Source: Hypericum androsaemum (taxonomy: Eukaryota; Streptophyta; Magnoliopsida; Malpighiales; Hypericaceae). From it: a DNA stretch of 64,000 bases. The stretch spans positions 16,180,228 through 16,244,227 of the forward strand of contig OZ023184.1 of NCBI GenBank assembly GCA_963995505.1, read 5' to 3'. The notes under the pieces are model-generated. The model was not told the DNA's origin, made no database searches, and saw only the letters and a program-made list of their open reading frames with translations. The position numbers and the translations under genes are program-made. Shown here piece after piece: positions 11,021 through 63,799 of this stretch (positions are counted from its first letter, which is position 1; the number at the start of each line of letters is the position of its first letter).

Positions 11021-12268
11021 TTACTGAATATTATCCTCCAAAATGTAATTGGGATATTCTTGGATATCCATCGGAAGAACTCCATCATGGAACGTAAACA
11101 ACGGTACTTGTGAATCTGAGTCAAACCCAATAATATTATTGAAGCTCCCCAGCTCTCCAGATGATCCGCCACCTTGGCACTCAAAATAAGCCTCCGGGTT
11201 AATGTTCTTCCCCTTGTTCAACATCATCAGGTCCCTCCTCCATGCGTCGAGCAACGACTGGTCGTCGAGGGACGAACCAGTACCCGAATACTCGCAGCTG
11301 GTAGAGCAAATGTTGGGGAAAGGATTGTTACCATTTAGCACCAGTTCGGGTTTGTAAACATTGGAGGGGTTGTTGGGAAGCAGCCCTTGGGTGATCTCTT
11401 GCAACAACCCGGAATCTACGTACTCGTGTTCTTGATGAGGGAGGTGGAAGTCCATGGACCCAGTAGCAGCCGCACCGGGCCCTCTTCCATTGGATATGGG
11501 AGGAATTGGGAGAGGTGGGTCCAAGACGATAATATTGTTGGAGGGGTCGTTAATGGGGTTAACAGGCGAGGGACCCGAAAGATCATTAACCGGAGAGGAG
11601 ACATTAGAGTACATAGGAGAAGATGAGGGAGTTGGTATTGGGTGGCCATTGACGTAAGGAAGGTGCTGGTCAAGAAGGAAGGGATATTGGTACAAGGAGG
11701 AAGCAGCAGCAAGTTCTCGAAGAAGAAGCATATTATAGAGAGACTCAGGGGAGACGAGGTTCCATTGGGGTACAATGGGAGAAGAACCAAAATTAGGGTT
11801 TCCGTGAGGAGGCAAGAGAGTGTTGCCGGTGGTGTTTCTAGAGAAGCGTTGGAGTATTTTGTTGTATGGGTAAGGGTTGAAGAAGAGGTCGGTGGCTGCG
11901 GAGTTTGGGTCGAGAATGGGAGGATAGACGAAGTTGGTCTGCGCCTTCAGCCCGCGCAATGCGCGGGCTGCAGCGTCGTAGGCGCAGGCTGCTTCCTCAG
12001 CGGTGTCGAAGGTGCCCAACCACCGCCTCTCCTTCGAATGTGGGTCCCTTATCTCCGCCGCGTATCGGCCCCACGGCCTCCTCCTCACCCCTCGGTACCT
12101 GATGGTGTTGGTGTTACCGGTGGCCGGGGCGACACCGTTTTGTTTCTGTGTCCTCTTAGTATTTGCGGTGGTTGTTGTCGTGGTAGTTGCTGGGGTTGGG
12201 GTGGTGGTTATGGGTGATTCTTGGTTGATTTTCTTTGGGACATTTGGGTTTCTAATGGGTTCTTCCAT
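11021..12268 (-). CDS. ERF transcription factor, ESR2/DORNROESCHEN-LIKE-type
   Basis: A 415-residue, single-exon AP2/ERF protein. One AP2 domain lies at about residues 57-116: it opens [19 protein letters not shown], contains WLGTF, and closes with TNFVYP. The Ala and Asp of AAEIRD are the two residues that mark ERF-type (GCC-box-binding) rather than DREB-type domains. Outside the domain are two features I associate with Arabidopsis ESR1/ESR2 (DRN/DRNL): a leucine-rich 'MLLLREL' block at 180-186 and the ESR motif '[13 protein letters not shown]' at 286-298. The N-terminal 'MEEPIR' also resembles ESR2. A Thr/Pro/Asn-rich linker and acidic C-terminus suggest an activation region. By family it should act in the nucleus to promote shoot and lateral-organ initiation and the cytokinin response. 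The start at 12268 is the first ATG after the TATA box and sits 56 residues before the domain. The gene looks intact. Group VIIIb assignment is firm; one-to-one orthology to ESR2 is inferred. Confidence 0.93.
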
Positions 12269-23870: not shown

Positions 23871-25567
23871 TTAATAGGTCTTGTTTTTTTTTTGATAAAT
23901 AATTCTACTTTATTAAAACATTTATTGTAAATATAAGTAGCCCACCACTTACTTAGCCCATAAGACTACCCGCATCAGCGAGCATTTGCTCGCCCGGGTA
24001 GTTTTTATATTATATATATATATATATATTAGCTAAGAAAATGGGAGGATTGGCCGCGCGAGTGCGGTCAGCCGATCGCAGCTCGCGCGCGCCAATTTTT
24101 GCGACGTCAATTTTTTAACTTCTTTTATTTAGTTCCACTTGACATAATATTATTCGTAAAAAATAGATTTTTTTGGATAGTATTTGTGTAGTTATAAAAA
24201 TTGAAATTATCTTTAACAAAATTAAAATTCTTTTTTTTAATATCTATAAAAAATAGAGCCCAATATTGACATATTTTGATACACAATTTGTATTCTAATT
24301 TTTGACATAACTAAATCGTTCGAATATTAATTTCAAACATATTTTTGACATTCTTACACTTCGAATTTGGAGAAGTCATAAACTAAAAAATTATAGATAT
24401 ATGTCCCACCTTCACAAAGCAACTTGAATCAACTCAATTGGACTCCGGAATAAGAAGTTGTGGCTCCCAAATCAAAACTCGTAATCGTAACTTGCTCGAC
24501 TATTGACTTCAAATATATTTTTGACATTCTTATACTTCGAATTTGGAGAAGTTATAAACTAAAAAGTTATAGACATATGTCCCACCTTCACAAAACAACT
24601 TGAATCAACTCAATTGGACTCCGAAATAAGAAGTTGTGGCTCCCAAATCAAAATTTATACTCATAATTCGCTCGACTATTGACTTCAAATATATTTTTGA
24701 CATTCTTATACTTCGAATTTGGAGAAGTCATGAACTAAAAAGTTATAGATATATGTCCCACCTTCATAAAACAACTTGAATCAACTCAATTGAACTCCGA
24801 AATAAGAAGTTGTGGGTCCCAAATCAAAATTTGTACTCGTAACTCGTTCGACTATTGACTTCAAATATATTTTTGATATTCTTATACTTTGAATTTGGAG
24901 AAGTCATGAACTAAAAAGTTATAGATATATGTCCCACCTTCGCAAAGCAACTTGAATTAACTCAATTGGACTCCGAAATAAGAAGTTGTGGGTCCCAAAT
25001 CAAAACTCGTACTCGTAACTCACTCGACTATTGACTTCAAATATATTTTTGATATTCTCATACTTTGAATTTGGAGAAGTCATAAACTAAAAAGTTATAG
25101 ATATATGTCCCACTTTCGCAAAAAAACTTGAATCAACTCAATCAGACTCTTGAATAAGAAGTTGTGGTTCCCAAACCAAAACTCATACTCGTAATTTATA
25201 TATAAATAAAAATGATAGTAGATAATATATGAATGAAGTGGAACAATCTTAATTTCTATCTAATTTTGTAATTATTTTGTAATCATAATTTAATTACTTT
25301 ATTGTAATTTTTTTCCTTGTTGTATTTATGGAATAATCATTATCGTATTTTATTATAATTTATATATAAACAAAAAATTATAGTAGATAATATGTGAATG
25401 AGAGAGAAATTAATTATTTATTTTATGAACTGGGTTGCTGCTGTGGGTAGAAAAATATGTAATTAGATTAGATTGGATTGGATTGGGTATAGATGAGAGA
25501 GAAATTAAATTATTTATTCTGTGAACTGGATTGGGTGGATTGCTGTTGTGGGTAGTTTAATAGGTCT
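23871..25567 (-). mobile_element. Retroposon-like insertion with 11-bp target duplication and internal satellite
   Basis: The inserted DNA is 23882-25556. It is flanked by the same 11 bases, TTAATAGGTCT, at 23871-23881 and 25557-25567. Just inside the left end is a run of T, then 'gataaataattctactttattaaaac'. Read on the minus strand this is an A-tailed 3' end like that of LINE/SINE retroposons. The 5' edge (minus strand) begins at ACTACCCACAACAGC, and a similar ACTACCCGCATCAGC sits near the other end at 23965-23979. This could instead reflect the inverted termini of a small DNA element nested in the insertion. There is no ORF. The middle holds a (TA)n run (24012-24029), a GC-rich 'ccgcgcgagtgcggtcagccg' block and five 176-bp tandem units. 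Confidence 0.7.
24300..25195. repeat. 176-bp tandem repeat array, about five units
   Basis: The marker 'cgaatttggagaagt' (or 'tgaatttggagaagt') occurs at about 24361, 24537, 24713, 24889 and 25065, giving an exact period of 176 bp. Each unit contains 'cttcaaatatatttttga(c/t)attct', 'cataaactaaaaagttatagatatatgtcccacctt', 'aacttgaatcaactcaatt' and 'ataagaagttgtgg'. The first unit is the most diverged at its left edge and the last decays into AT-rich sequence near 25195. A related single block occurs near 3325-3390, so the unit is built from dispersed repeat sequence. The period is in the nucleosome-length range typical of plant satellites, but five copies inside an insertion is far from a centromeric array. 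Confidence 0.9.
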
Positions 25568-28076: not shown

Positions 28077-29174
28077 TTAAGTTAGGAAATCGTTTACTAG
28101 ATCTGGAAGTGGGAACTGAAAGATTAAATCATCGTAAATCGAGTTCGGATCTTCTTCAACATGGACCGGAAACACCTGTGAGCTCGTCGCACTCCCATTC
28201 GGGTAATTCTCCAATAAATCAGCAGCCACGTTGTTGATCTCCTTCTCCTTGCTAATCATATTGCACCCATCCAACCGGACGGCCAGGTCGGGATAATAAC
28301 TCCGATGAGAAACGGCTACTCCCGCCATAGAACTTGTAGTGGTAGTAGAAGCAAAGGAAAGATTCGAAGGCGTGGAAGAAGCCTGGAACGAGTTGCTCGG
28401 GAACAAGTTGACGCCGGACGAGGGCTTATTAGTTGCCCCAGCAGGAGCACTAAAGAGAGGAGCCAGGAGAGGTAGTGATGAAGCAAGGCCAGAGACAGAA
28501 CTGGTAAACATCGAGGACGATTCGGGTAACAGTGGCCCGTGGATGTTATGGTTGTGGAGCGAGGAAGCAAGGGAAGAGCTCAACAATTCACGGAGGAGAA
28601 GCAAGTCGTTGTAGAGGGAAGCGGAGGAAGGATGAGGAGAATAGGATGAAACGGTGCAGGGGGGAGGAGATGAATTGATCATGAAGGTGTCAATGGGAGA
28701 GCAGGAAGAGGGAGGAGGGTTTACGAAAGGCGACCAGTTGATGTTGTGGTTGTTATTGTCATGCGTTCTAGTGAGGCGTTGGAGTGTTTTAGGGAAGTTG
28801 ATGTAAGGGTGGGATCGGAGGAAGTGGGAGTTGGCGAATCCATTGGGGTCAACGATGCAAGTGGCGTTTGAGTATATGAAGTTGGTTCGAGCCTTGAGCC
28901 CGTGCATGGCTCGGGCCGCGTAGTCATAGGCGTAGGCGGCTTCCTCGGCAGTATCAAAGGTTCCCAGCCACTTCCTTTCCTTGGAGCGCGGGTTCCTTAT
29001 TTCCGCCGCGAACCGGCCCCACGGCCGCCTCCTTACCCCTCTGTACTTGGGAGCAGTGGCACTCTCTTCCTTTGGCGGCTTCTTGTTTATCGGGCTGGCT
29101 GCGGCCGCGGTGGTGAAGCTATTTTGCTGGCGGTTGGTATCGCTGGGATGTTGCACCTTGTTGAGTAGCGTCAT
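28077..29174 (-). CDS. ERF transcription factor, ESR-like paralog 1
   Basis: A 365-residue, single-exon AP2/ERF protein. The AP2 domain covers about residues 44-101: [19 protein letters not shown] at the start, WLGTF in the middle, ARTNFIY at the end, with the ERF-type Ala and a conserved Asn in place of the usual Asp after AAEIR. A leucine-rich block '[20 protein letters not shown]' at 187-206 matches the '[10 protein letters not shown]' block of the ERF protein at 11-12.3 kb and is typical of ESR/DRN relatives. The C-terminus ends '[18 protein letters not shown]', an acidic-aromatic tail that may activate transcription. I do not see the canonical SGLLQEI motif. Its closest relative in the window is the gene at 62.6 kb, with the same MTLLN start, 'KKPPKEES' linker and tail. 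It should be a nuclear DNA-binding regulator; the Asp-to-Asn change may alter binding. The start is supported by conservation of the ATG context in the paralog. Confidence 0.92.
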
Positions 29175-29283
29175 TGAGCTTTAATTGGAAAGTGAGAAAG
29201 GGAATGATGTTAAAAATATGAGAAAACACCTAGCTAGGGCTAGCTTTAGTTGAGTTGATAATATGATATTGGGTTTTAGCGTG

Positions 29284-29292
29284 TATTTATAG
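29284..29292 (-). promoter_or_regulatory. TATA box of ESR-like paralog 1
   Basis: On the minus strand this reads CTATAAATA, about 110 bases before the ATG at 29174. The same CTATAAATA occurs at the matching place upstream of the inverted paralog (62475-62483), so it is conserved between the two promoters. Confidence 0.75.
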
Positions 29293-29754
29293 ACGCGCAA
29301 ACCAAATAATAACGTAGCCGGAGGAAATATTTTTTGGGTAAAAAGTAAGAACTAAGGATTTTTGCTCGTCTTAAATTGGATAGGGTTACCAATTTACCCA
29401 CTTTATTTTTAGCTAGCTAGGGTTGGAGGATCACGAGTGTATATGCAGTAATTATTACGAAATTGGGTTTGCTACTTTATGATTCCGTAGCTAGTTAGGT
29501 TTTGATTTATTTTGTTAGCCTTTTCGTATATTATTCTAGAGTACTTATAAAAAATTTATTATTCTAGAGTGTAATATTATAATGGTTACATCGAGAAATT
29601 ACCCTTCGTATATGCTTCACATGGGAAGCATATGCAATGGAAAGATAACACCAAGAAAAATGTCAGAAAAAACTTTTGCAATAAGTATATTTACACTGAT
29701 AAATTAACCTTAGTATAAGCGATTTTCAGTTAGGTCATCTATATTTAGCGCCGA

Positions 29755-38335: not shown

Positions 38336-39202
38336 TGTTTAAGAGATTTTTTTCAAAATAGGCAGAAAACATAGATATATTTTCTAAATAGGTAAAAACT
38401 TAATATATTCTCAAAATAGACAAAAATTAAATTGGAAATTAAAAAAATAGAGGTGACGACCCAAGAGTGGGTCGTCTCTTTCTCTTTGAAGAACACATCA
38501 ACTTTACAAAAAAAATATAATAATGGAGGCGACCCAAGTGTAGGTCGCCTCTCTGACAATTCAAAAAAATTCTAATTAATGAGACTCTTTTTTTATTTAT
38601 TTTATAAGTGGCATAAGTTAGTGTTAGATTGTCCGAATGAGTTAAATTTTGATTTAATTTCACTTAATTTATCGAGACCTATGCGTAGAACTCAAAAAAT
38701 CAAAAAAAATTTAACTCGTTCGGACAAACGATAAAAGAAAAAATTTAAAAAAAGTAGATTAAGGAGGTGACGTGCAACTAGGTCGCCTCTCCTTTTTGAA
38801 TTTTTTCTAGTTTTTTTAAGCGTGTTAAGTGGACAATTCGTTGCTCGGGTATTCGAACGAGTTAATTTTTTTTTATTTTGCGTAATTTTTTGAGCTCTAC
38901 GCATAGGTCTCGATAAATTAAACAAAATTAAATCAAAATTTAACTTATTCGGACAATACACTAAATTATGCCACTTATAAAATAAATAAATAAATAAAGA
39001 GTCGCAAATCTTTTGAATTGTCAAGGAGGCGACCTACACTTGGGTCGCCTCCTTTATTATATTTTTTTGTAAAGTTGATGTGTCCTTCAAAGAGAAAAAG
39101 ACGACCCACTATTTAATTTTTACCTAGAATATATTAAATTTTTGCCTATTTAGAGAATATATCTATATTTTCTACCTTTTTTAGAAAAAATTTCTGTGTT
39201 TT
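38336..39202. mobile_element. Foldback element 2 (about 0.87-kb palindrome)
   Basis: An almost complete palindrome centred near 38780: each arm is about 430 bp with no long spacer. Inverted matches include 'gggtcgtctcttt' with 'aaaaagacgaccca', 'tgaagaacacatcaactttacaaaaaaa' with its complement near 39060-39090, 'ggaggcgacccaagtgtaggtcgcct' with the same at 39024-39051, and 'atcgagacctatgcgtaga' with 'tctacgcataggtctcgat'. Each arm also contains its own GC-rich hairpin (GGCGACCCAAGTGTAGGTCGCC), and the centre is another (38765-38790). Transcripts would fold into one long double strand. No ORF of note and no clear target duplication. Confidence 0.88.
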
Positions 39203-39655
39203 CTAACTCTACGCCTGAACCACTTCTGGTTCGTGGCCTCTCCGGAATTAGTATTTTGTATGTCGTTTGCTTGGATCGATGTTTGTTTGATCGATGTTTG
39301 TTTGATCTCAGATCCGAATAGATCTCATATCTTTTTTGTTAACTCAGGTGGTTAAACTTGTCAATCAGGAACAAAGACTGTACGTGATTGACAGTAGTAT
39401 ATTTGTTTTCCGAAAAGACAATTGCCTCGTACATATGATTCCATATCTTTTGGTCCGTTACAATTTCCAATCAAACAAATATACTACTGTCAATCACGTA
39501 CAGTCCCTGTTTTTTCTTTTGCTAAAAGATTCGAACCCAACAAAATTTTCCAACTTCTTTTGTTTTCTTGTCAGACACTTGACAAAACATTTCTGACTTG
39601 GGCTTCCCTATTTCAGGTTTGGAGAAATGTCAAGGCACAAAGGCGTCTGTCATAA
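39203..39655. other. Intergenic, holds a perfect hairpin
   Basis: Between foldback element 2 and the large Mutator-like element. There is no protein gene. A 33-bp perfect inverted repeat is listed separately. A 'gatcgatgtttgttt' motif is directly repeated near 39275-39306. Confidence 0.45.
39376..39505. ncRNA. Candidate small-RNA precursor hairpin
   Basis: The arm 39376-39408 (starting GACTGTACGTGATTGACAGT) and the arm 39473-39505 are perfect reverse complements over 33 bases, separated by 64 bases. The fold would be a clean stem-loop of about 130 nt, the size of a plant miRNA precursor or a tiny MITE. Perfect pairing suggests either a very young MIRNA-like locus or a mobile-element hairpin. 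Strand and transcription are unknown. I do not recognise the arm as a known miRNA. Confidence 0.4.
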
Positions 39656-39664
39656 TTTATTTAT

Positions 39665-40013
39665 GGGCAAATTGTCCTCGGATCTTTTGAATTTGTTTAA
39701 ATTATTATTTTAGTCCCATCATTTCAAAATAAAAAATTTGGTCTCCTAGTTTAATTTTATTGTACTCTTAGGTCCCTCCATCGGAATCAAAAAATTTCTC
39801 TGGCGAGGAGGGACCTGAAATGACTCAACTGCCCTTAGTGAAAAAATAATTTTAAAATAATTTTCCTCCTTCCCCTCTTCTCTCCTCTCTCATCTTCAAC
39901 CCCATTTTCATCTTCGACCTCCCCATTCCTAGGAAAACTAATTAAACACCCAAAATAATCCAATCAAACAACCAAAAATATTGAATTAATTTTTGAAGTC
40001 TGATCAACTCCCC
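39665..40013 (+). repeat. Left terminal inverted repeat of the plastid-carrying element
   Basis: Begins GGGCAAATTGTCCTCGG and ends 'aatattgaattaatttttgaagtc'. It includes a pyrimidine-rich block (39864-39925) of 'cctcc/ctctc' type that is also present, complemented, on the right. By eye the two arms look about 80 percent identical with small indels. Confidence 0.9.
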
Positions 40014-41100
40014 ATCCTACCTCCTCTACTCAGACTGGGCCAATACTTCGCACGCCAATTTAAAATTTAAGCCTTCTTTTTGTTGGTTTAATAAATTTTC
40101 TTTTTGAAATCAGTCCGAATGTGTCTCGGGCCCTTGTAACAGTATCACATAAAAATAAATATTCTGTAAAAAAATTGATTTGTAGAAGAACCCAGCGATC
40201 ATGAATATTTTTGAACAAATCAATTAACCCATCAACAAATCTATTACGTCATATTTTTTCATGCCAGTCCTCCAAGAGGTCATTACTAAGCCGGGCTAGG
40301 ACGAAAAATAATATATCATTGAGCGTAATGTTTATGACGCAATAGCCAATGGGTACTGGAAGAAAGAATGGTATGATGTAAGAGGAGGACTTAGGAAAGG
40401 TGCCCTTGTGATTGTGATTTGGCCATTTTGGGCCCCACCTTCCTCAGAATTCTTAGATTCCTCTTTCAACGTGTTAACTATTACAACTGGCGACGATTGA
40501 ACATTGTACCTCGAATCCCTTAACTTAAAGGAAACTAGTACAAAATTAAAGAACGCGCTCGTAACTCTGAGGTTTTGAAGAATGGCAAGGATGAACTCCC
40601 AACCGGGATTCCGACCCCGGCCATTATCACTATTAGTATTAGTATTAGGTCCCATCAACTCAATCCCCCCTATCGATATATATATAAAGATATAAAAAAA
40701 TAGGTGCTACAATCGACGACCTATTGTTTGCAGCTGTTTACTTTACGAATTTATTAATTGAAAGCTGCCCAAGCCTAGCATGACTTTTTTCATTCCATAA
40801 GGCTAGAAGGATGAACTACCCAAAAGCTTTAATCAACCTCACTTTTCTTTCTTTCTAAGAGATTCAATAGAATAACTCGGCTCAAGCTTTATTGTTGTCT
40901 TTGTTATATTCTATCTATTATAACTTTTTTTGGAAAAAAGTCAATTCGTTTGGCTTTTAAATTTTGATTGAAATATAGAAATCCAAGAATCCTACAATAA
41001 ATAACGCATTTATTATGATATTCTTATTGGATTAGAACAGTATGCACACAAGGACTCAATATTAAAAAAAATCCAACTGTGCTTGCCTTTTTCATCATGG
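40014..41100. other. Unidentified interior segment of the large element
   Basis: Not recognised. It contains an open minus-strand frame of 108 codons (40658-40332), with 'GRGRNPGWEFILAILQNL' near its start and no domain I know. A short motif 'ccaatacttcgcacgcc' at 40032-40048 recurs as 'ccaatactttgcacgcc' at 45659-45675, next to the other end of the cargo. Whether this part is plastid spacer or nuclear filler cannot be told by eye. Confidence 0.4.
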
Positions 41101-41354
41101 GACACGGCTTTTCTTGAATATCCATCTAAAGCTGGGGTCCCTCACTAGATGAAAGCACTAAGGAAGTGGAATACTCAATCTCAACCCACCTTTTTTTTAT
41201 CGCATTTCAATTTTTAGGAAATGTAATATAAATTTGAACAGTAAAATCTATGAAAAATGGATAAGTAGAAATGACAGTCAAAGTGGAATAGAATAGAATA
41301 ACATAGATCAAGTCTAATTAAAATCTATTCTATGAGATATAATCGTGCCATTAT

Positions 41355-41426
41355 TGCCCAGTAGCTCAGTGGCAGAGCGATCGGCTGTTAACCGATTGGT
41401 CGTATGTTTGAATCCTATTTCGGGAG
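41355..41426 (+). pseudogene. trnN-GUU: Plastid-derived tRNA-Asn(GUU) pseudogene
   Basis: A 72-base match to plastid trnN. The D-arm 'agctcagtggcagagc', the anticodon loop 'ctgttaac' with GTT, and the variable/T arms are recognisable. The T-loop reads GTTTGAATC instead of GTTCGAATC, and the acceptor stem has at least two mismatches, so folding is compromised. It is on the strand opposite to the rRNA genes, as in plastids. Confidence 0.88.
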
Positions 41427-41551
41427 ATTTAACTGATTCTGCATTAGATACTTCATTCTGAATTGAATAATTCCTTCAGGCTGAAGGATCTAGGAGGACC
41501 TCCCCATTATGATTTTTGAGGGTACCTTACTTTTTTCCATATTGTGGGCAA

Positions 41552-41628
41552 GGGCCTGGAGGGATTTGAACGCCCAACACTGCAGTTCGTAGCTATGTGC
41601 TCGGATCCCCTGAGTTACATACAGGCCC
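41552..41628 (-). pseudogene. trnR-ACG: Plastid-derived tRNA-Arg(ACG) pseudogene
   Basis: On the minus strand it begins GGGCCTGTATGTAACTC and contains the anticodon arm around 'gctacgaactgc' (ACG), ending with a 'ttcaaatccctcc' T-arm. Relative to the plastid gene it has a 2-base insertion in the early D-arm region and several substitutions. It lies between trnN and rrn5, the plastid order. Confidence 0.85.
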
Positions 41629-41695
41629 ACCTTGCCTCTACTCCTTTTTTCATATTGAAAAAGTAATAAGAATGAGGGGTGTTAAGCTTTTTAAC

Positions 41696-41816
41696 ATCCT
41701 GGCATCAAGCTATTTTTTCGCAAGGCCTCCCCTAAAGTACTTTTGCCGCAGTCAAGGTTAACCACCAAGTTCGGTATGAGTTTGTGTGATTCTTCTATGC
41801 TGAGGACACCAGAATA
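41696..41816 (-). pseudogene. rrn5: Plastid-derived 5S rRNA pseudogene
   Basis: About 120 bases. On the minus strand it begins TATTCTGGTGTCCTCAGC and ends near 'gcttgatgccagga', with the conserved 'ccgaacttggtggttaac' centre. Scattered substitutions relative to plastid 5S rRNA mark it as a nuclear relic. Confidence 0.9.
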
Positions 41817-42057
41817 TCGACCGATGATCAAAGAAATGCATACGAGAAAAACCTATTGGCTAGTGATTCTGGGATTATGGGGCCCCCATTCGAAGGGGAC
41901 ATCAAAAGATCTGTCCTCCTTCTTTATCGATCCAAGGGATGGAAGGATGAAAGGGCGGGCAGAGCTTTGGCTTTTTTCATGTTGTCAAAGAGTGGAACAA
42001 TAAAAATAGATGGCGAGTACCTGATCAAATTTATCGGGTCATGTAATGTAGGAACAA

Positions 42058-42162
42058 GGTTCAAGTCTACCAGACTATTAGGATGCCTCAACTGCATACA
42101 ACACTACACTTCCACTTGACACCTATCGTAATGATAAATGGCTCGTCTCAGCTTGACCATCC
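42058..42162 (-). pseudogene. rrn4.5: Plastid-derived 4.5S rRNA pseudogene
   Basis: The span of 105 bases matches the usual 103. On the minus strand it carries 'gacgagccatttatcatt', 'gataggtgtcaagtggaagtg' and a terminal 'gtagacttgaacc'. 4.5S rRNA is unique to plastid ribosomes of land plants, so this feature alone shows the plastid origin of the tract. Confidence 0.92.
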
Positions 42163-42260
42163 TTGAATTCTCAAAACTTATGTCGCTCCATCCCCAAAGG
42201 GGTAGAGAACCCATCACTGTCTCAGTTGTGCTACCAGAGGCTTTGTCTAAGTCAGAATAT

Positions 42261-44807
42261 GAGAGCACTCATCTTGGGGAAGGCTTTTTACTTAGATGCT
42301 TTAAGCAATTATCCACTCCACACTTGGCAACTAGCGTTTACTGTAGGTACGATAATTGCTACACCAGAGGTGCATCCTTCCCAGTCCTCTCTTACTAGGG
42401 AAAGGTCCTCTCAATGCTCTAATGCCCGCACCAGATATGGACCAAAATGTCTCACAATGTTCTGAACCCAGCTCACGTACCACTTTAATGGGAGAACAAC
42501 CCAACCCTTAGAACATCCTACAGCCCCAGATGGCAAAGAGCTGAAATTGAGGTGCAACCTTCCCATTGATGTGATCTCTTGGGAAAGATCATCATGTTAT
42601 CCCTAGAGTAACTTTTATCCGTTGAGCGACGGTCCTTCCACTCAGTGCCATCGGATCACTAAGGCTGACTTTTGTCCCTGCTTGACGGGTGGGTCTTGCA
42701 GTCAAGCTCCCTTCAGCCTTTGTACTTGAGGGCCGATCTCCATCTGGCCCGAGGAAACCTTTGCATGCCTCTGTTACCTTTTGAGAGGCCTATGCCCCAT
42801 AGAAATTGTCTACCTGAGACTATCCCTTAACCCGTAGGTCCTGACACAAAATTAGAATTCGAGCTTTTCCAGAGTGGTATCTCAGTGATGGCTCGAACCC
42901 CCCTCCCCCCAAAAGGGAGGCTTCTTTGCCTTTCACCTAAGCTCTGCAAGAAAGGCCCGAAGCCAATCCTAGTGAACAATAAAGCTTTATAGGGTGTTTT
43001 TGTCCAGGTGCAGATAGTCTGCATCTTCACAGACATGTCTATTTCACCAAGCCTCTCTCCGAGACAATGCCCAGATCATTACACATTTCGTGTAGGTCAG
43101 AACTTACCTGATAACGAATTTTGCTACTTAGGATTGTTATAGTTATGACAGCCATTAACCGGAACTTCGGTTATCAACTTTCCTGTAATCAGGTCACCAA
43201 CCTCCTTCACCTTCTAGCACTGGGCAGGCATCAGCCCTTATACATTGTCTTACAACTTTACTGAGACCTGTGTTTTTGGTAAACAGTCGCCCAAGCCTGG
43301 TCACTTCGACCCCCTCTATAAGTGGGCACCCTTTCTCCCGATGTTACAGAGCTATTTTGCCGAGTTCCTTAGAGAGAGTTATCTCGCACCTCTAGGTATT
43401 CTCTACCTACCCACCTCTGTCAGTTTGAGTACAGGCACCCTTTTATTGCTGGTCATATTCGAGCTTTTCCTGGGAGTATGCCATGGGTTAACTTCAGTAC
43501 CCTTTCAGCATGTATTGTTACTAGGGCGGCAGTAGGGGCTGAAGTATGAACATTGGCTCGAGGCATTTTCTCTACCCCTTCTTAACCTGATAAAGTAGGG
43601 ACACCCTGCATCCTAGAACCGACAACCATCTCATCCATCGGGTAACCTAGCCTCCTCCGTCCATCGGGACTAACAAGGGGTAGTACAAGAATATTTACTT
43701 ATTGTCCATTGAGTACGCCTTTCGGCCTGATCTTAGGCCCTGACTCACTCTCCGTGGATGAACCTTGCGAAGGAACCTTTAGGTTTTTGGGGCATTAGAT
43801 TCTCACCAATGGTTATATTACTCAAGCCAATATTCTTGCTCACGCTTTGTCCACCTGCTCGCACGGGTGCTTCCCTCTAAAGCGATATGCTCCCCTACCG
43901 ATGCATTTTTACATCCTACAGTTTCGGAAGATTGCTTAGCCCTATTAATCTTTGGTGCAAGAGCGCTCAATCAGTAAGCTATTACGCACTTTTTAAAGGG
44001 TGGCTGCTTCTAGGAACACCTCATGGATGTCTCTGCACCCCCACCTCCTTTATCACTGAGCGGTCATTTAGGGGCCTTAGTTGGTGATCTAGGCTGTTTC
44101 CCTCTCGACGATGAAGCTTATCCCCTATCAGCTCACTGGCCGACCTTGACTGACCCCTTAGATTTTGAGGTCCTATCTAGTATTCAGAGTTCATCTAAGC
44201 TTCATCCTAGTCATGGATAGATCACCCAAGTTCGGGTCCGTAAGCAGTGACAATTGCCTATGAAGACTTGCTTTCGCTATAGTTCCGGTGGGTTTCTTTA
44301 ACCAAGCCACTGCCTATGAGTCACCTGCTCATTTTTCAATAGGCACGCGGTTAGAGCCCAGGGCTCCTCCTACTGCTTGGGAGCTTATGATTTCATATTC
44401 TATTTTAATATGCCCCATGATATTCGGGTCAGAGTGTAAGCTAGTGATGCTTTCGACTACTGGAATTTTGCCATCTAGGGTGCAGCACTTCACTGCTTCG
44501 ACTATTAGCACGACGCTTGTATTGCTCTCCACAATCTCATTTTCTCATGGTTTAGGCTGATCCCATTTTGCTCGCCGCTACTACGGGAATCACTTTTGCT
44601 TTCTTTTCCTTTAGTTACTAAGATGTTTCAGTTCGCCAGGTTCTCTCTTGCTTGCCCATGGATTCAGCAGCAGTTTGAAACTTTGACCTATTTGAGAATC
44701 TCAAGATCTATGATTGTTTGCAACTCCACGAAGCATTTCATCACTTCCTACGCTCTTCCTCGTCTTTGGGTACCTCAGTATCCACCGTAAGCCTTTCAAA
44801 ATTTGAA
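42261..44807 (-). pseudogene. rrn23: Plastid-derived 23S rRNA pseudogene
   Basis: The 3' end lies at about 42261 (minus-strand 'ccccaagatgagtgctctc') and the 5' end near 44807 ('ggcttacggtggatactgaggtaccc', with the normal plastid 5' 'aaacgagg' changed). Recognisable blocks run throughout: 'ggataacaggctgatg'-type PTC surroundings near 42590 appear changed to 'tctagggataacatgatg', and 'gactgtttaccaaaaacac' appears near 43280. The span of about 2,547 bases is some 260 short of a plastid 23S gene, implying deletions. Open frames inside are fortuitous. Confidence 0.93.
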
Positions 44808-44959
44808 CCTCACCCTCAACTTGAAGGCTATGTCATCCTAAGGTTGTGCTAAATACAAGGATCTTATCAACGTCCATGAATCCAAAAGCATAAATAGAAC
44901 TGTCGAATCAGAAAAATGGGGGGCTATCGTATAACTTTTTACCAGCTAAGTTCACGAGT

Positions 44960-44991
44960 TGGAGATAAGCGAACTCAAACTGCTGACATCC
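44960..44991 (-). pseudogene. trnA-UGC: Plastid-derived trnA-UGC 3' exon
   Basis: The minus-strand 'ggatgtcagcagtttgagtt' and 'cgcttatctcca' match the 3' exon of plastid trnA-UGC with a few substitutions. It is followed (44992-45658) by recognisable trnA group II intron sequence with indels, including 'ggagttactgtaatcagtgg' and the 'ctccactaggttccctcatc' region. The intron breaks off near 45,658, so the 5' exon, trnI and rrn16 are absent. Confidence 0.85.
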
Positions 44992-45688
44992 GCCATAGGG
45001 TAGACCACCGCCTATCGGGCCCCCACTGATTACAGTAACTCCCCCTCGAACTGTGCTCTCCAAAGAGCAACACTTCTTAAAATCTCAAAAGGTGTTTACT
45101 GAGTAGGAATCCCATTCTAACTAAAGATTCTTGTGATTACGGAGGATCCAACTACAAGAAAACCAGGAATGGAGAGCCCCTCCGCCCCCCCACCCCCCCT
45201 TCGCCACACTATTTGGTTTTAAGAATGCTAATTTTTTAAGAATTTTGAACAATGAGTGATTGCCCTTCTCCGACCCTTACTGACCAACTTTAGAGCGGAC
45301 AACTAATGCCTTCCACTTATTGAATAGGGTTCTATGATTGGTTCGCGACCCCCGGATGCCGAAGATGCCGTTGGGGTGATCTCGTAGTTTCTACATGATG
45401 GAGACGATGGGGTCGGTCCATGGATTTTCCTTCTTTTGTCGCATTTTGCTAAAGGGTTGAAGGGAGATAGTGCATCAATTTATTCGCAAAGGCCAACTTG
45501 ATCCTCTTCCCCAGGGATTCCAGATGAGGGAACCTAGTGGAGCAGCCAACTCCAACTATCGTCCGTGCAGGATCCATACTAGATCTGACCAATTACCTAT
45601 GCTATCTCCTCTACGTTCTTCACAGCCCGTCTTTGTCTCAGTAGAGTCTTCCAGTGTCCAATACTTTGCACGCCCATCCACCGTAGAC

Positions 45689-46040
45689 TTAAAAATTAAT
45701 TCAATATTTTTGATAATTTGATTGGATGATTTTGGGTATTTAATTGGTTTTTCTGGGAATGGGGGAGGTTGAAGATGAAGACGGGTTTGAAGATGAGAGG
45801 AGAGATGGGAGGAGAGAGAAGAGGGGAGGAAGTAGGAGAGAGGGGATTTTTTTTATATTTTTTAACTAAGGGCAATTGGATCATTTCAGTTCCCTCCTCG
45901 CTGGATAAATTTTCCTATTTCGACGGCAGAGACCTGAGAGTATACTAAAATCAAACTAGGGGACCAAAGTTTCAATTTTGAAACAGCAAGGACTAAAATA
46001 ATAATTTAAGCAAAACTAGGAACTTGAAGATAATTTGCCC
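45689..46040 (-). repeat. Right terminal inverted repeat of the plastid-carrying element
   Basis: The inverted partner of 39665-40013. It ends 'ataatttgccc' at 46040, directly followed by the 9-bp duplication TTTATTTAT. The inner boundary lies about 30 bp from the last recognisable trnA intron sequence. Confidence 0.9.
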
Positions 46041-46049
46041 TTTATTTAT

Positions 46050-47283
46050 TTTGTGAAAGTAATTTTTACACAAAGAATTACACATGTTAAGGATTGAACT
46101 CTGCATTTATATCAATTCGTATATGTATGTCTCTGTCATAATTTATAGGGCATCGAGTAACATGAGTTAGAGGCGAGAATCGAAGCGGGAATCTTTTGTT
46201 CCTCTTCCCAAACCGTCTCCCATCTTTACCTTTCTTCAACTTCGCAAGTGTTTTCTCGAGTCTATTATAGCTCGAGCTAGGGTTTTCGTTTCTTTTCACA
46301 GGCAACTGCCCGAGTCGTCAAGTGACATAATCAAAAATTCGCATGCATTTTTTTTGATGATTTTTAAGCCACAAACTTATACGTATCAAATCCTAAAACT
46401 ACAGGGTACTAAAGTACACTTTTCCATTAATCTTTTAATATTAATGTTCCTAATAAAGCAAATACTACCTGATCTATGTAGTCAGACCAAATAGACTATT
46501 GAAAATACTAATCATATTTGATGTAATGGGAACAAGCAACATGTAACGTTGATGATGATGATTGGTAATTAACCCGTTGAGACTTAACTCCAATGAGAGA
46601 GGGGTGGGGATTAACCCTTCATAACCTAAGATTAATGTGAGATAGAGAAATTGAATTATCATCAACTAGCAGCCTGTAGTTTTTTTTAACGGCTATTTCA
46701 TGCCTTTTTATGACATACAAACGGTTGTTTCTTGCTATTTTGTGGTGCTAGATTTTTTTACCCGGTATACTTTTTCTCAAAACCTCATTTGGAAAAATAA
46801 TTTAATAGCTATGCACAAATTTTCCCAAGATAAATAAGAGACCCGGGAATTAGTTAACACTAGATTAACAAATTGATAACCGAAACATATAGCAAAGGAA
46901 TTGATTGAAGAGAGATGATCGAGGAAGGGAAAAACGCGACGAGAAGAAGATGAGCTTTAGCTCAGAGAAGAGAAGTAACCGCCAGAAGTTTCTTGAACCG
47001 AATTGTATTTTTTCCATACAATGTTTATCCCGCGTGTTCTCTATTTATACAACTATCCAACCATCAAAACGACGCCGTCTAACTAAAGAAAGAAAAGGAC
47101 TAAAATGCCCTTAAAAGGCACGCGCACATCACATGTCAAAGTCGTTACAAGCGCCGAGCTATCTTCAAAATCTGGTTGCCACCAACGTTCATCTGCAATG
47201 GATAGCAGCATCAATCAGCTCCATCTCTTGCTTCTTCATTTGAGATAGATTTTTAAGTCATCAATCTCGTTAACAACGAGTCA
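46050..47283. other. Intergenic, possible solo LTR near 46.9-47.2 kb
   Basis: No gene. The part around 46900-47120 has a purine-rich block and then 'gttctctatttatacaac' followed by GC-richer 'acgacgccgtctaac'. This is reminiscent of a retrotransposon LTR read in the minus direction, but no paired ends or target duplication were found. Confidence 0.3.
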
Positions 47284-60602: not shown

Positions 60603-62279
60603 CCATTACCTCACAATATTTGGAAAGCCGCATGAATCACACATTTTAAATCAAAGGTTAATTTAATAATTTTAAAATGTTAATGTTATTGTTCGAATTG
60701 TAAATGCGAGTAGAAGTTTCTACTCTTCCTATTTTTAGTTTTGGTCAAGAATCATATGCTAATTCGTTCAGTGCAGAACTTAAATTACAAAATTTTGGTT
60801 TTCGGTTCTAGTTCAGTTTTCCAACCTAAGAACTAAAGACAATCGACCTGAACCAGACCGTATTATGGTTGGTAACACTTTTGTTGTAGTGTCAAGAAAT
60901 GATCATATAATTGATGTGCATAATTTTTACAAATGGGTCTCACTGGCCTTCTGCGAGGCCTCCTTACAGCAGTATTCACCACAAATGGACAGACAATTAT
61001 AGTTTTTCACCCATGTCGTTTTCGTGAAAAGATTGGTCCCTAAGGACAGGAAATCGCCCCTTGAGCTACCAATTTCTTCTCAAAAGGAAAAAGCAACGAG
61101 TCAACGAATTGGAGTTGGTCAAAGTAGTAACAAATTAAAATTTATTTATAAAGGTTTTGATTTGAAAGCCTTACGAATATTAATAATATTATTAGAAAAA
61201 TCACCTCATAACTAAAATTCGATGTCGGTATTTAGCTCCGAATATTATAACTAACACAAAACATCTACCGGGCCGGATTACCTGCTAGACAATGAATAGA
61301 AGTTGGTCACATTAGTAACAAACAAGGATTGACTTAAAAATATTTTTAAGTTTAAACATGCACAATGTTATAAACAATTACATCATCTCCTAAACTAAGA
61401 ACCAATACTTAACTCTAAATATCATAACTAACACAAAAAATCTACCAAACCCAAATTAGCTGCATAAAGAGGCGGTGATAGCGACGGGAGTGTAGGCCAC
61501 TCAGTGTTAGTAGGAGCGCAACGTCATCTTTCGACATATGCGCGGCTTGGTCCCTGAGCTGCTCAACTTAACTGGGACACACAATAAAATAATACATAGA
61601 GGCACTGACCAAAATTAATTTTACATTGTGGAGGACCACCCACTGCAACCACACGTCTGAACGTCGTCGTCCTTTTTGCCTAATGCATCGTGATCCTCAC
61701 CCAGAAACAAACAAGTAATTATCGAAAATATTGTACAATAACTACTATAATGACGGATTTTTTAATGAAGTTTTGTACAAGTAATCATCGCCTATGCTAC
61801 TTTTGTGCAATCGGTTGTATCCATGGGCGCTATTGTATCCATGGTGTTAAGTCCTCAACAATTATTTTTGTTACTGTTATCTTCACAATGGGTCATTTTT
61901 CGGAGTAATATGAGAGAAAATAAAATCAATGAGATTGATTTTTCTATCGAAAATACTGTGTGAAATTTTTAGCAATGAATTTTGCTGTCAGGTTTTTAAA
62001 AAGGTTAGTGGTCACAAAATTGTGCTTCTTTTGATGTATATATTATAATAAAATTTATTTCTAAAAAAACTATGTGAATTTTTTGCTATTCCTCTTTCGC
62101 TTTTCCTTTCTCAAGGTAAGAGCGTATGAATCAATAGAAAATTTTTCTTTTATATGCATTTTTATGAACCGATGTTATTATTTTTCAATATCTCCCAAAA
62201 AAATCTTAAAATGGGTCAAAAGGATTAATGTGAACTTATCTACGCAGTATATAAAATAAATCAAAACCTGGCTAGACAT
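60603..62279. other. Far upstream region of ESR-like paralog 2
   Basis: No gene. It contains the right copies of the inverted-duplication anchors: 60933-61018 (with 'ctgcgaggcctcctt.cagcagtattcaccacaaat') and 61466-61535 ('gaggcggtgatagcgacgggagtgta...cactcagtgtta', then 'aacgtcatct'). Between them a 'aagttggtca.agtagtaacaaa' motif occurs twice (about 61109 and 61301), showing a roughly 190-bp direct duplication. Confidence 0.5.
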
Positions 62280-62474
62280 AGAATCATAAAGTAGCAAACC
62301 CAATTTCGTAATAATTACTGGATATACATTGGTGGTCCTCTAACCCTAGCTAGCTAAACATGCCCTGGGTAAATTGGTAATCCTGTCCAATTTAAGACAA
62401 ATCAACAGTCCTATGTTCTTACCTTTTACCCAAAAAAGTTACCCTCCCGCTAGGCTATTATTTGGTTTGTGTGT

Positions 62475-62483
62475 CTATAAATA
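62475..62483 (+). promoter_or_regulatory. TATA box of ESR-like paralog 2
   Basis: CTATAAATA, about 120 bases before the ATG at 62600, conserved with the promoter of the inverted paralog. The flanking 'gtgt.tata...cgta' context and the upstream 'ttatttggtttg' are also conserved. Confidence 0.75.
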
Positions 62484-62599
62484 CGTACTACAATATCTTA
62501 TTATCACATCAACTAAAGCTAACCCTAGCTATTAGGTGTTTCCTCATCTTACTCTTTACTACAACTTTGCCCTAACAATCCCTTGCCAATTAAGGCTCA

Positions 62600-63799
62600 A
62601 TGACGCTCCTCAACCAAGTACCATATCCCAACGACACCGACCACCAGCAAAATAGCTTCACCACCACCGCGAACCTGGTAGCCACAAACAAGAAGCCGCC
62701 AAAGGAAGAGAGTACCACTACTCCCAAGTACAGAGGGGTAAGGAGGCGGCCGTGGGGTCGGTTCGCGGCGGAGATAAGGGACCCACACTCCAAGCAGAGG
62801 AAGTGGCTGGGCACCTTCGACACTGCCGAGGAAGCCGCCTACGCCTACGACTTCGCAGCCCGAGCCATGCGCGGGCACAAGGCTCGAACCAACTTCATAT
62901 ACCCAAACAACACTTGCATCGTTGACCCTAGTGGATTCTCCAACTCCCACTTCGTCCGCTCCCACCCTTACATCAACTTCCCTAAACAACTCCAACGCCT
63001 CATAAGAACACACGACAACTACAACAACAACATCAACTGGTCACCTTTCGTGAACCCTCCTCCATCTTCTCCCATCAATAATATCAATTCCTCTCCTCCC
63101 CTCTGCACCGTTTCGCCATATTGGAACGGTGCGAATTGCGATAACCATTCTCCTCCTCCTCGTCCTTCGGTTGCTTCCCTCTACAACGACGTGCTTATCC
63201 TCCGTGACTTGTTGAGCTCTTCCCTTGCTTCCTCGCTCTACAACCATAACATCCACGGGCCACTGCTACCCGAATCGTCCTCGATGTTTACCAGTTCTGT
63301 CTCTGGCCTTGCTTCATCAGTACCTCACATGGCTCCTCTTCTTGGTGCAACTAATAACACCACTATACCTCTCTTTAGTGCTCCTGATGGGGCAACTAAG
63401 CCCTCGAGATTCGCCAATTCCGGCGTCAACTTGTTCCCGAGCAACTCGTTCCACGCTTCTTCCTCGCCTTCGAATCTTTCCTTTAATTCTACTACCACTA
63501 CAAGTTCCGTGGCGGCACAATCAGTTTCTCATCAGAGTTATTATCCCCATCTGGTGGGCCAGCCGCTGGATGGGTGCAATATGTTTAACAATGAGAAGGA
63601 TATTAACAACGTGGCTGCTGATTTCTTGGAGAATTACCCGAATGGGAGTGCGACAAGCTCACAGGTGTTTCCGGTCGATGACAATGAGCTCCTAATGAAG
63701 AATGTAGAGGAGGAAGAAGAAGATCCGAACTCGGTTTACGATGATTTAATCTTTCAGTTCCCACTTCCAGATCTTGTAAATGATTTCGTTTCTTTTTGA
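62600..63799 (+). CDS. ERF transcription factor, ESR-like paralog 2
   Basis: A 399-residue, single-exon AP2/ERF protein, the close paralog of the gene at 28.1-29.2 kb. The AP2 domain spans about residues 44-101: [19 protein letters not shown], with the usual ERF Asp retained where the paralog has Asn, then WLGTF and ARTNFIYP. A leucine-rich '[20 protein letters not shown]' block follows near 193-212. A Ser/Thr/Pro/Asn-rich middle contains '[19 protein letters not shown]', shared with the paralog. The C-terminus has an acidic run '[15 protein letters not shown]' and the tail '[16 protein letters not shown]', a likely activation region. It is 34 residues longer than its paralog through several in-frame insertions in the low-complexity part (for example around residues 180-190 and 245-265). 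By family it is a nuclear GCC-box-type regulator of organ or meristem development; the exact role is not determinable here. Confidence 0.93.

What the first reader, a model, noticed from the sequence alone, without database searches (positions are those of the whole stretch)
39656..46049. Mutator-like element that carries a plastid ribosomal RNA tract between long inverted repeats
Seen directly: perfect 9-bp flanking repeats TTTATTTAT, GGGCAAATT/AATTTGCCC tips, about 350-bp inverted repeats, and inside them a collinear plastid trnN, trnR, rrn5, rrn4.5, rrn23, trnA tract. Pack-MULEs are known to capture nuclear gene fragments. A MULE whose cargo is a 4.5-kb NUPT would link organelle-to-nucleus transfer with transposon mobility, so plastid rDNA could be moved and multiplied in the nucleus. 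The plastid tract stops about 30 bp from the right inverted repeat, which argues for capture or an insertion close to the edge.
Basis: partly seen in the sequence, partly recalled or inferred. Interest (0 to 1): 0.88.

Follow-up and report, generated by a model that had tools for sequence, protein, structure and literature searches.

The report
Jumping-gene shell holding chloroplast rRNA genes
In a plant chromosome, a decayed 5.7-kb piece of chloroplast DNA (the ribosomal RNA genes) fills the inside of a Mutator-type jumping gene, which suggests that such elements can pick up organelle DNA as they pick up ordinary genes, although no second copy shows that this one moved with its load.

Summary
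A perfect 9-bp duplication (39656-39664, 46041-46049) flanks GGGCAAATT tips and 337/356-bp inverted repeats. Between them (40002-45684) lies old plastid DNA: spacer, trnN, trnR, rrn5, rrn4.5, rrn23, trnA exon and intron. A 311-bp gap (40881-41191) inside the tract matched nothing listed. The inverted repeats belong to a large family of about 1-kb MULEs. Of 18 sampled cores 10 are unrelated to any other, and one TIR-plus-core cassette sits at two sites with different TSDs, so the family behaves like Pack-MULEs. Both arms stop at the same homologous base (within the 3-base ambiguity of one junction), no MULE core is left, and each cargo edge carries a short copy of the opposite cargo end. This favours Pack-MULE-style capture over a NUPT that landed in a resident MULE. 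The cargo is decayed (148 of 253 changes at conserved rRNA sites are C>T or G>A), so an assembly chimera is very unlikely. Movement of the composite is not shown: no second copy was found in capped searches, and the empty-site search did not complete. Arm-to-arm divergence cannot date it. A new variant (organelle cargo) of a known kind.

The parts
39656..39664 (.). left 9-bp target site duplication TTTATTTAT
   Evidence: sequence
39665..40001 (+). left terminal inverted repeat, tip GGGCAAATT, inner end AAGTCT (the last TCT is also shared with the trnA intron, so the end is uncertain by 3 bases)
40002..40029 (+). 28-nt piece of plastid trnA intron (copy of a stretch near the right end of the cargo), joined to the spacer through the shared TAC 40027-40029
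   Evidence: 26 of 28 to NUPT L068 (22-25 in L065, L069, L071); best of 3000 random 28-mers 20
40027..41353 (+). plastid inverted-repeat spacer between ycf1 and trnN (old plastome version); 40881-41191 has no match in the listed hits and is assigned by position only
   Evidence: 40027-40601 matches C29:153717-154313 and 40711-40775 matches C29:112573-112509; NUPT at C2:15021269-15022705; gap check
41354..41427 (+). plastid trnN-GUU relic
   Evidence: ARAGORN; Rfam
41555..41628 (-). plastid trnR-ACG relic (approximate, read by eye)
   Evidence: sequence reading; not called by ARAGORN
41697..41813 (-). plastid rrn5 relic
   Evidence: Rfam RF00001
42057..44808 (-). plastid rrn4.5 and rrn23 relics
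   Evidence: Rfam RF02541; decay spectrum
44955..45656 (-). plastid trnA-UGC 3' exon (start approximate, by eye) and intron; collinear plastid homology ends at 45656
   Evidence: seven other matches also stop at query 157 = 45656; the three of those loci that I read continue with the plastid intron there
45657..45676 (+). 20-nt copy of the head of the plastid spacer (the left end of the cargo)
   Evidence: 18 of 20 to C29; best of 1000 random 20-mers 17
45676..45685 (+). 10-nt ATCCACCGTA identical to the 5' end of rrn23 (44780-44789); could be chance
45685..46040 (-). right terminal inverted repeat, inner end AGACTT, tip AATTTGCCC
46041..46049 (.). right 9-bp target site duplication TTTATTTAT
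   Evidence: sequence

Best explanation
This is a non-autonomous MULE of a Pack-MULE-like family whose core was replaced by a plastid rDNA tract. Shown: TSD, TIRs, family, exchangeable cores, a mobile TIR-plus-core cassette in sibling elements, a plastid interior reaching both TIRs, and edges that repeat the opposite cargo end. Inferred: after a MULE cut or excision, gap repair between the two TIR ends copied plastid-derived DNA (fresh organelle DNA or an existing NUPT), with template switches at 1-3 shared bases at the edges that left the short copies. Not shown: that the loaded element transposed afterwards. The 9-bp duplication shows that a TIR-bounded unit inserted here, before or after loading.
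For: TSD and TIRs. The TIR family has 42 matches reported in each of two searches, from 746 and 918 first-look candidates of which 40 each were scored. Of 20 sibling stretches fetched around hits, 18 gave a paired-TIR core of 240-651 bp. In 10 of 20 a search for tips and TSD found a perfect 9-bp TSD, 9 of them at the ends of the matched arms and one (L021) at a neighbouring pair. Of the 18 cores, 6 form one related group, 2 another, and 10 share at most 44 bp with any other. L019 and L024 are 94% alike end to end with different TSDs and unrelated left flanks. WIN_L and WIN_R are each other's closest arms in a tree of 36 arms (17 of the 20 siblings; L014, L021 and L022 not entered; support values not read). 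Both arms end at the same homologous AAGTCT with no core left. The edges carry copies of the opposite end, with TAC and probably GGC shared at the joins. [quoted passage not shown] The cargo is 43% GC against 36% for the window outside the element.
Against: No second composite among scored places. At 5.7 kb the core is far larger than any of the 18 sibling cores (at most 0.65 kb). NUPT insertion at a break inside a MULE with loss of the core would look nearly the same. No autonomous partner with these TIRs was found: of 150 MULE-transposase places one 4-kb stretch was fetched, and it carries no family TIR, though it may not reach that element's ends. Arms of several siblings (such as L009, L025, L026) are not each other's closest in the tree. 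No empty site was tested. 311 bp of the cargo (40881-41191) has no match.
Confidence: 0.62

Rival explanations
1. Nested insertion: a short MULE was already here and plastid DNA was pasted into a break in its core, losing the whole core. The element never moved with plastid cargo.
For: NUPTs commonly enter at double-strand breaks by end joining (recalled knowledge). Microhomology junctions and filler pieces fit. No second composite was found.
Against: A core like those of the siblings (240-651 bp) would have to be lost to the same homologous base in both arms. The opposite-end copies at both edges need a further explanation, such as a circular or tandem plastid molecule.
Confidence: 0.28
2. 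The plastid fragment was a circle or head-to-tail tandem (trnA intron joined to spacer) before it entered, and slightly more than one unit was taken up. This is compatible with capture or nested insertion (so its odds overlap with theirs) and explains the edge copies without template switching.
For: Both edges link the same two plastid places, trnA intron to spacer head, in the same orientation.
Against: The two links are not the same junction: the left joins at TAC, the right about 40 nt further along the intron, probably through GGC. One pre-existing junction would give identical links unless one was later changed.
Confidence: 0.2
3. Two unrelated solo TIRs flank an ordinary NUPT by chance, or the junctions are assembly errors.
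For: None found beyond the low complexity of the TSD.
Against: The arms are closest to each other in the arm tree. Random 9-mer pairs matched in 4 of 200,000 draws. The cargo is decayed nuclear DNA with a C>T/G>A excess rather than modern plastome.
Confidence: 0.02

Closest known systems
Pack-MULEs (Mutator-like elements carrying host gene fragments)
   Same: 9-bp TSD, long TIRs, roughly 1-kb family with many different cores, a cassette that moved with its core, no transposase found inside
   Different: cargo comes from the plastid genome, is rRNA/tRNA rather than a nuclear protein gene, is about 9 times larger than the largest of 18 sibling cores, and has no second copy in the searches made
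NUPTs (nuclear plastid DNA)
   Same: plastid gene order kept, old, with methylation-type C>T decay; 58 other merged places in this genome matched parts of it
   Different: bounded on both sides by the two arms of one transposon
Papaya HSY rps15 NUPT amplification near Ty3 retrotransposons (reviewed in PMC7037861, passages)
   Same: plastid DNA proposed to spread through transposable elements
   Different: there the retrotransposon lies nearby (under 1.5 kb); here the plastid DNA is inside a DNA transposon

Membership tests
MULE (Mutator superfamily) | 9-11 bp target site duplication | tested here: met
   perfect 9 bp; 10 of 20 sibling stretches also have a perfect 9 bp
MULE (Mutator superfamily) | long terminal inverted repeats, typically 100-500 bp | tested here: met
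   337 and 356 bp, 263 identical of 306 aligned
MULE (Mutator superfamily) | mobilised by a MULE transposase from an element sharing the TIRs | tested here: inconclusive
   genome has many PF10551 places (150 of 736 candidates scored); the one stretch fetched carries no family TIR
Pack-MULE | non-autonomous MULE with acquired host sequence between its TIRs | tested here: met
   interior is plastid rDNA reaching both TIRs; the usual definition speaks of genes or gene fragments, so organelle DNA stretches it
Pack-MULE | acquired sequence has transposed together with the TIRs | tested here: inconclusive
   shown for a sibling cassette (L019/L024), not for the plastid cargo (no second copy)
NUPT | homologous and collinear with plastome, in a nuclear chromosome | tested here: met
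   spacer against C29; gene order trnN-trnR-rrn5-rrn4.5-rrn23-trnA (order in plastomes recalled); part of C29, probably its rDNA, is withheld, so that part was not aligned
NUPT | nuclear decay, C>T and G>A excess | tested here: met
   148 of 253 changes at 1507 conserved sites against 26 of the reverse type; the four references used as controls gave 6:3, 11:4, 18:4 and 54:62

The most novel reading that the evidence does not exclude
MULE gap repair took up organelle DNA and then carried the plastid rDNA to this site as transposon cargo. Organelle-to-nucleus transfer and transposon capture would then be one pathway, with Pack-MULEs redistributing NUPTs.
Probability: 0.33. Interest if true: 0.75.

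Novelty: new variant of a known kind. Interest (0 to 1): 0.52.

Why it matters
How Pack-MULEs acquire DNA is described as not understood (PMC3310237, 2012, passages). A cargo of known foreign origin has its own reference, so its edges can be read base by base: here they show joins at about 3 shared bases and short copies of the opposite end, which bears directly on the capture step. If the composite moved, NUPT spread would have a DNA-transposon route besides the retrotransposon one already proposed.

Tried and rejected
Dating by TIR divergence: rejected. Arms inside one element differ by tv 3.6-6.3% in 11 siblings and 4.9% here, whereas the same arm in two copies of one sibling (L019/L024) differs by tv 1.2-1.5%, and 5' and 3' arms cluster separately in the L013/L019/L020/L024 clade.

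Looking for other composites: the 41 loci include 2 that are the window and 2 that are C29. The other 37 (some overlapping) had no family TIR beyond two matches of 28 and 35 nt, and no other flanking inverted repeat within 1.5 kb (no positive control was run for that last test). Among 66 TIR and 73 NUPT places typed in, which merge to 50 and 58 loci, the nearest pair is 99.7 kb apart (the window, C29 and places already listed were not entered).

Plastid references elsewhere: patterns in viral contigs and genome contigs found 0. 23S copies of three cyanobacteria and one Paenibacillus on plasmid records were used instead.

Shared parent NUPT: the C2:15021269 copy shares 87 of 558 differences from C29 with the cargo, but their spectrum is unbiased (18 C>T/G>A, 12 the reverse), so they look like plastome changes, not shared nuclear decay. 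This gives no proof of a parental NUPT. Two further rows of that alignment were not used; one (C2:17540875) was misaligned at 43%. Cargo bases 40794-41191 are missing from the C2 copy, so a deletion there or an insertion in the cargo is possible; not resolved.

Prior reports: searches of the held library listed no paper that I recognised as describing plastid DNA inside a MULE; most were seen as listing only. Passages were read in PMC2528002, PMC12312487, PMC7037861, PMC3310237, PMC9055812 (Pack-MULEs and NUPTs mentioned separately) and PMC4274372 (likewise). PMC3029777 was not held.

Full report
What is there. The window lies in a 385-Mb, 29-contig genome at C5:16180228-16244227. I take contig C29 (155,000 bases) for its plastome: it holds ycf1 (my reading of the ORFs) and an inverted repeat of which the 1,501 bp compared are identical. 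At 39656-46049 the two copies of TTTATTTAT enclose GGGCAAATT tips and inverted repeats 39665-40001 and 45685-46040. The element is 6,376 bp without the TSD and its interior is 5,683 bp.

The interior is plastid at both ends and nearly throughout. Rfam and ARAGORN find trnN, rrn5 and an LSU that spans 23S plus 4.5S. To the right, plastid collinearity reaches 45656. Seven other matches stop at the same query base, and the three of those loci that I read go on with the plastid trnA intron there. Matches cover 5314 of 5686 bases; 40881-41191, between spacer and trnN, is assigned by position only.

The edges are mosaics. Left: TIR ending AAGTCT, then 28 nt of trnA intron (26 of 28 to NUPT L068; the best of 3000 random 28-mers scored 20), joined at a shared TAC to the plastid spacer. 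Right: trnA intron to CAGTG, then 20 nt of the spacer head (18 of 20 to C29; the best of 1000 random 20-mers scored 17), then ATCCACCGTA as in the 5' end of rrn23 (a 10-mer, possibly chance), then the TIR from AGACTT. Each end therefore carries a short copy of the other end. The two links are different junctions (TAC, and probably GGC with one later change), so one pre-formed circle junction does not explain both without a later change. No MULE core sequence is recognisable, and both arms stop at the same homologous base, give or take the TCT that left arm and intron share.

The family. Left- and right-arm searches each reported 42 matches, with only 40 of 746 and 40 of 918 candidates scored. 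Of 20 fetched stretches (L009-L028), 18 gave arm pairs with 240-651 bp cores (core limits are where the BLAST match to our arms stops) and 10 have a perfect 9-bp TSD with element sizes of 836-1156 bp. Six cores form one group, two another, and ten are unrelated to all others apart from matches of 44 bp or less. L019 and L024 share arms and core (94%) with different TSDs and unrelated left flanks, so this family moves TIR-plus-core cassettes. The window's two arms are each other's closest relatives in the 36-arm tree.

Age. Against three cyanobacterial and one Paenibacillus 23S, 253 of 1507 conserved sites differ, 148 of them C>T or G>A and 26 the reverse. The same count for each reference against the rest gave 6:3, 11:4, 18:4 (cyanobacteria, 1.9-3.2% of sites) and 54:62 (Paenibacillus, 12.9%), so the small cyanobacterial counts lean the same way but only the cargo has a large excess. 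I read the cargo as long-resident nuclear DNA. Where at least one other NUPT of this genome keeps the cyanobacterial base, cargo-private changes are 138 transitions and 37 transversions in 1787 sites (tv 2.1%), with 9 ambiguous sites set aside; a further 157 differences from the cyanobacteria are shared with a NUPT. In the spacer, cargo-only changes are 26 of 558, 14 of them transversions (2.5%). Sibling copies differ by tv 0.6% (L014/L024), 1.2% (L019/L024), 1.6% (L010/L016), 2.6% (L013/L019) and 5.6% (L019/L020), about 0.3-2.8% per copy, which is consistent with the family moving both before and after the cargo entered the nucleus. The arm-to-arm divergence of the element (tv 4.9%) is no clock, for the reason given under Tried and rejected.

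Copy number. No second composite appears. Cargo hits elsewhere are separate NUPTs (72-95% identical, the longest 1.5 kb at 83%; 40 of 564 candidates scored). In the right-junction search, where all 37 candidates were scored, no other place holds both cargo and TIR. Arm hits elsewhere reach at most 82%, or 84% in two pieces under 90 bp. The nearest TIR-NUPT pair elsewhere is 99.7 kb apart.

Mechanism. I think it most likely that repair of a cut or excised MULE filled the gap from plastid-derived DNA with template switches at the edges, which is the kind of event proposed for Pack-MULE acquisition (recalled; the one paper read on this calls the mechanism not understood). A NUPT pasted into a broken core remains a serious rival. 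The evidence does not decide whether the loaded element then moved: the TSD belongs to the TIR unit, not to the load.

Verdict. A real and clean composite: a Pack-MULE-like element with organelle cargo. I found no report of such a case in the searches listed. It is a new variant of a known kind, with mobility unproven.

Noticed in passing
C29:154502-154654 and 112637-112859 (L062, L059): Today's plastome spacer holds a 153-bp rrn5/rrn4.5-spacer fragment (87% to window 41906-42064) and a second partial copy of the 40426-40647 segment; the cargo has neither between 40601 and 40775. With the C2 NUPT it differs from C29 at 87 of 558 shared sites with an unbiased spectrum, so both look like fossils of an older plastome.
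   Followed up: partly
39646-39660 and 46132-46146: A 15-bp exact direct repeat TCTGTCATAATTTAT lies just outside the element on both sides (the left one overlaps the TSD); with the element removed it would flank about 86 bp. Possibly the scar of another insertion or a short tandem duplication.
   Followed up: no
38364-39204 and 39370-39511: Two palindromic (fold-back-like) stretches directly left of the element, 75% self-complementary by BLAST.
   Followed up: no
28086-29513 and 62253-63787; 11021-12268: Three AP2/ERF transcription factor genes; two of them are an inverted duplicate at 80% DNA identity that encloses the element.
   Followed up: no
G000, many contigs: PF10551 MULE transposase ORFs of about 585-590 aa occur in dozens of places with identical scores, suggesting a recently amplified autonomous MULE. 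One fetched stretch (L080, 4 kb) does not carry this family's TIRs.
   Followed up: partly
24312-25197: Tandem repeat of about 176 bp, five copies or so, mostly 86-92% alike.
   Followed up: no
40881-41191: 311 bp inside the cargo that matched neither the readable plastome nor any listed NUPT; the C2 NUPT lacks 40794-41191.
   Followed up: no
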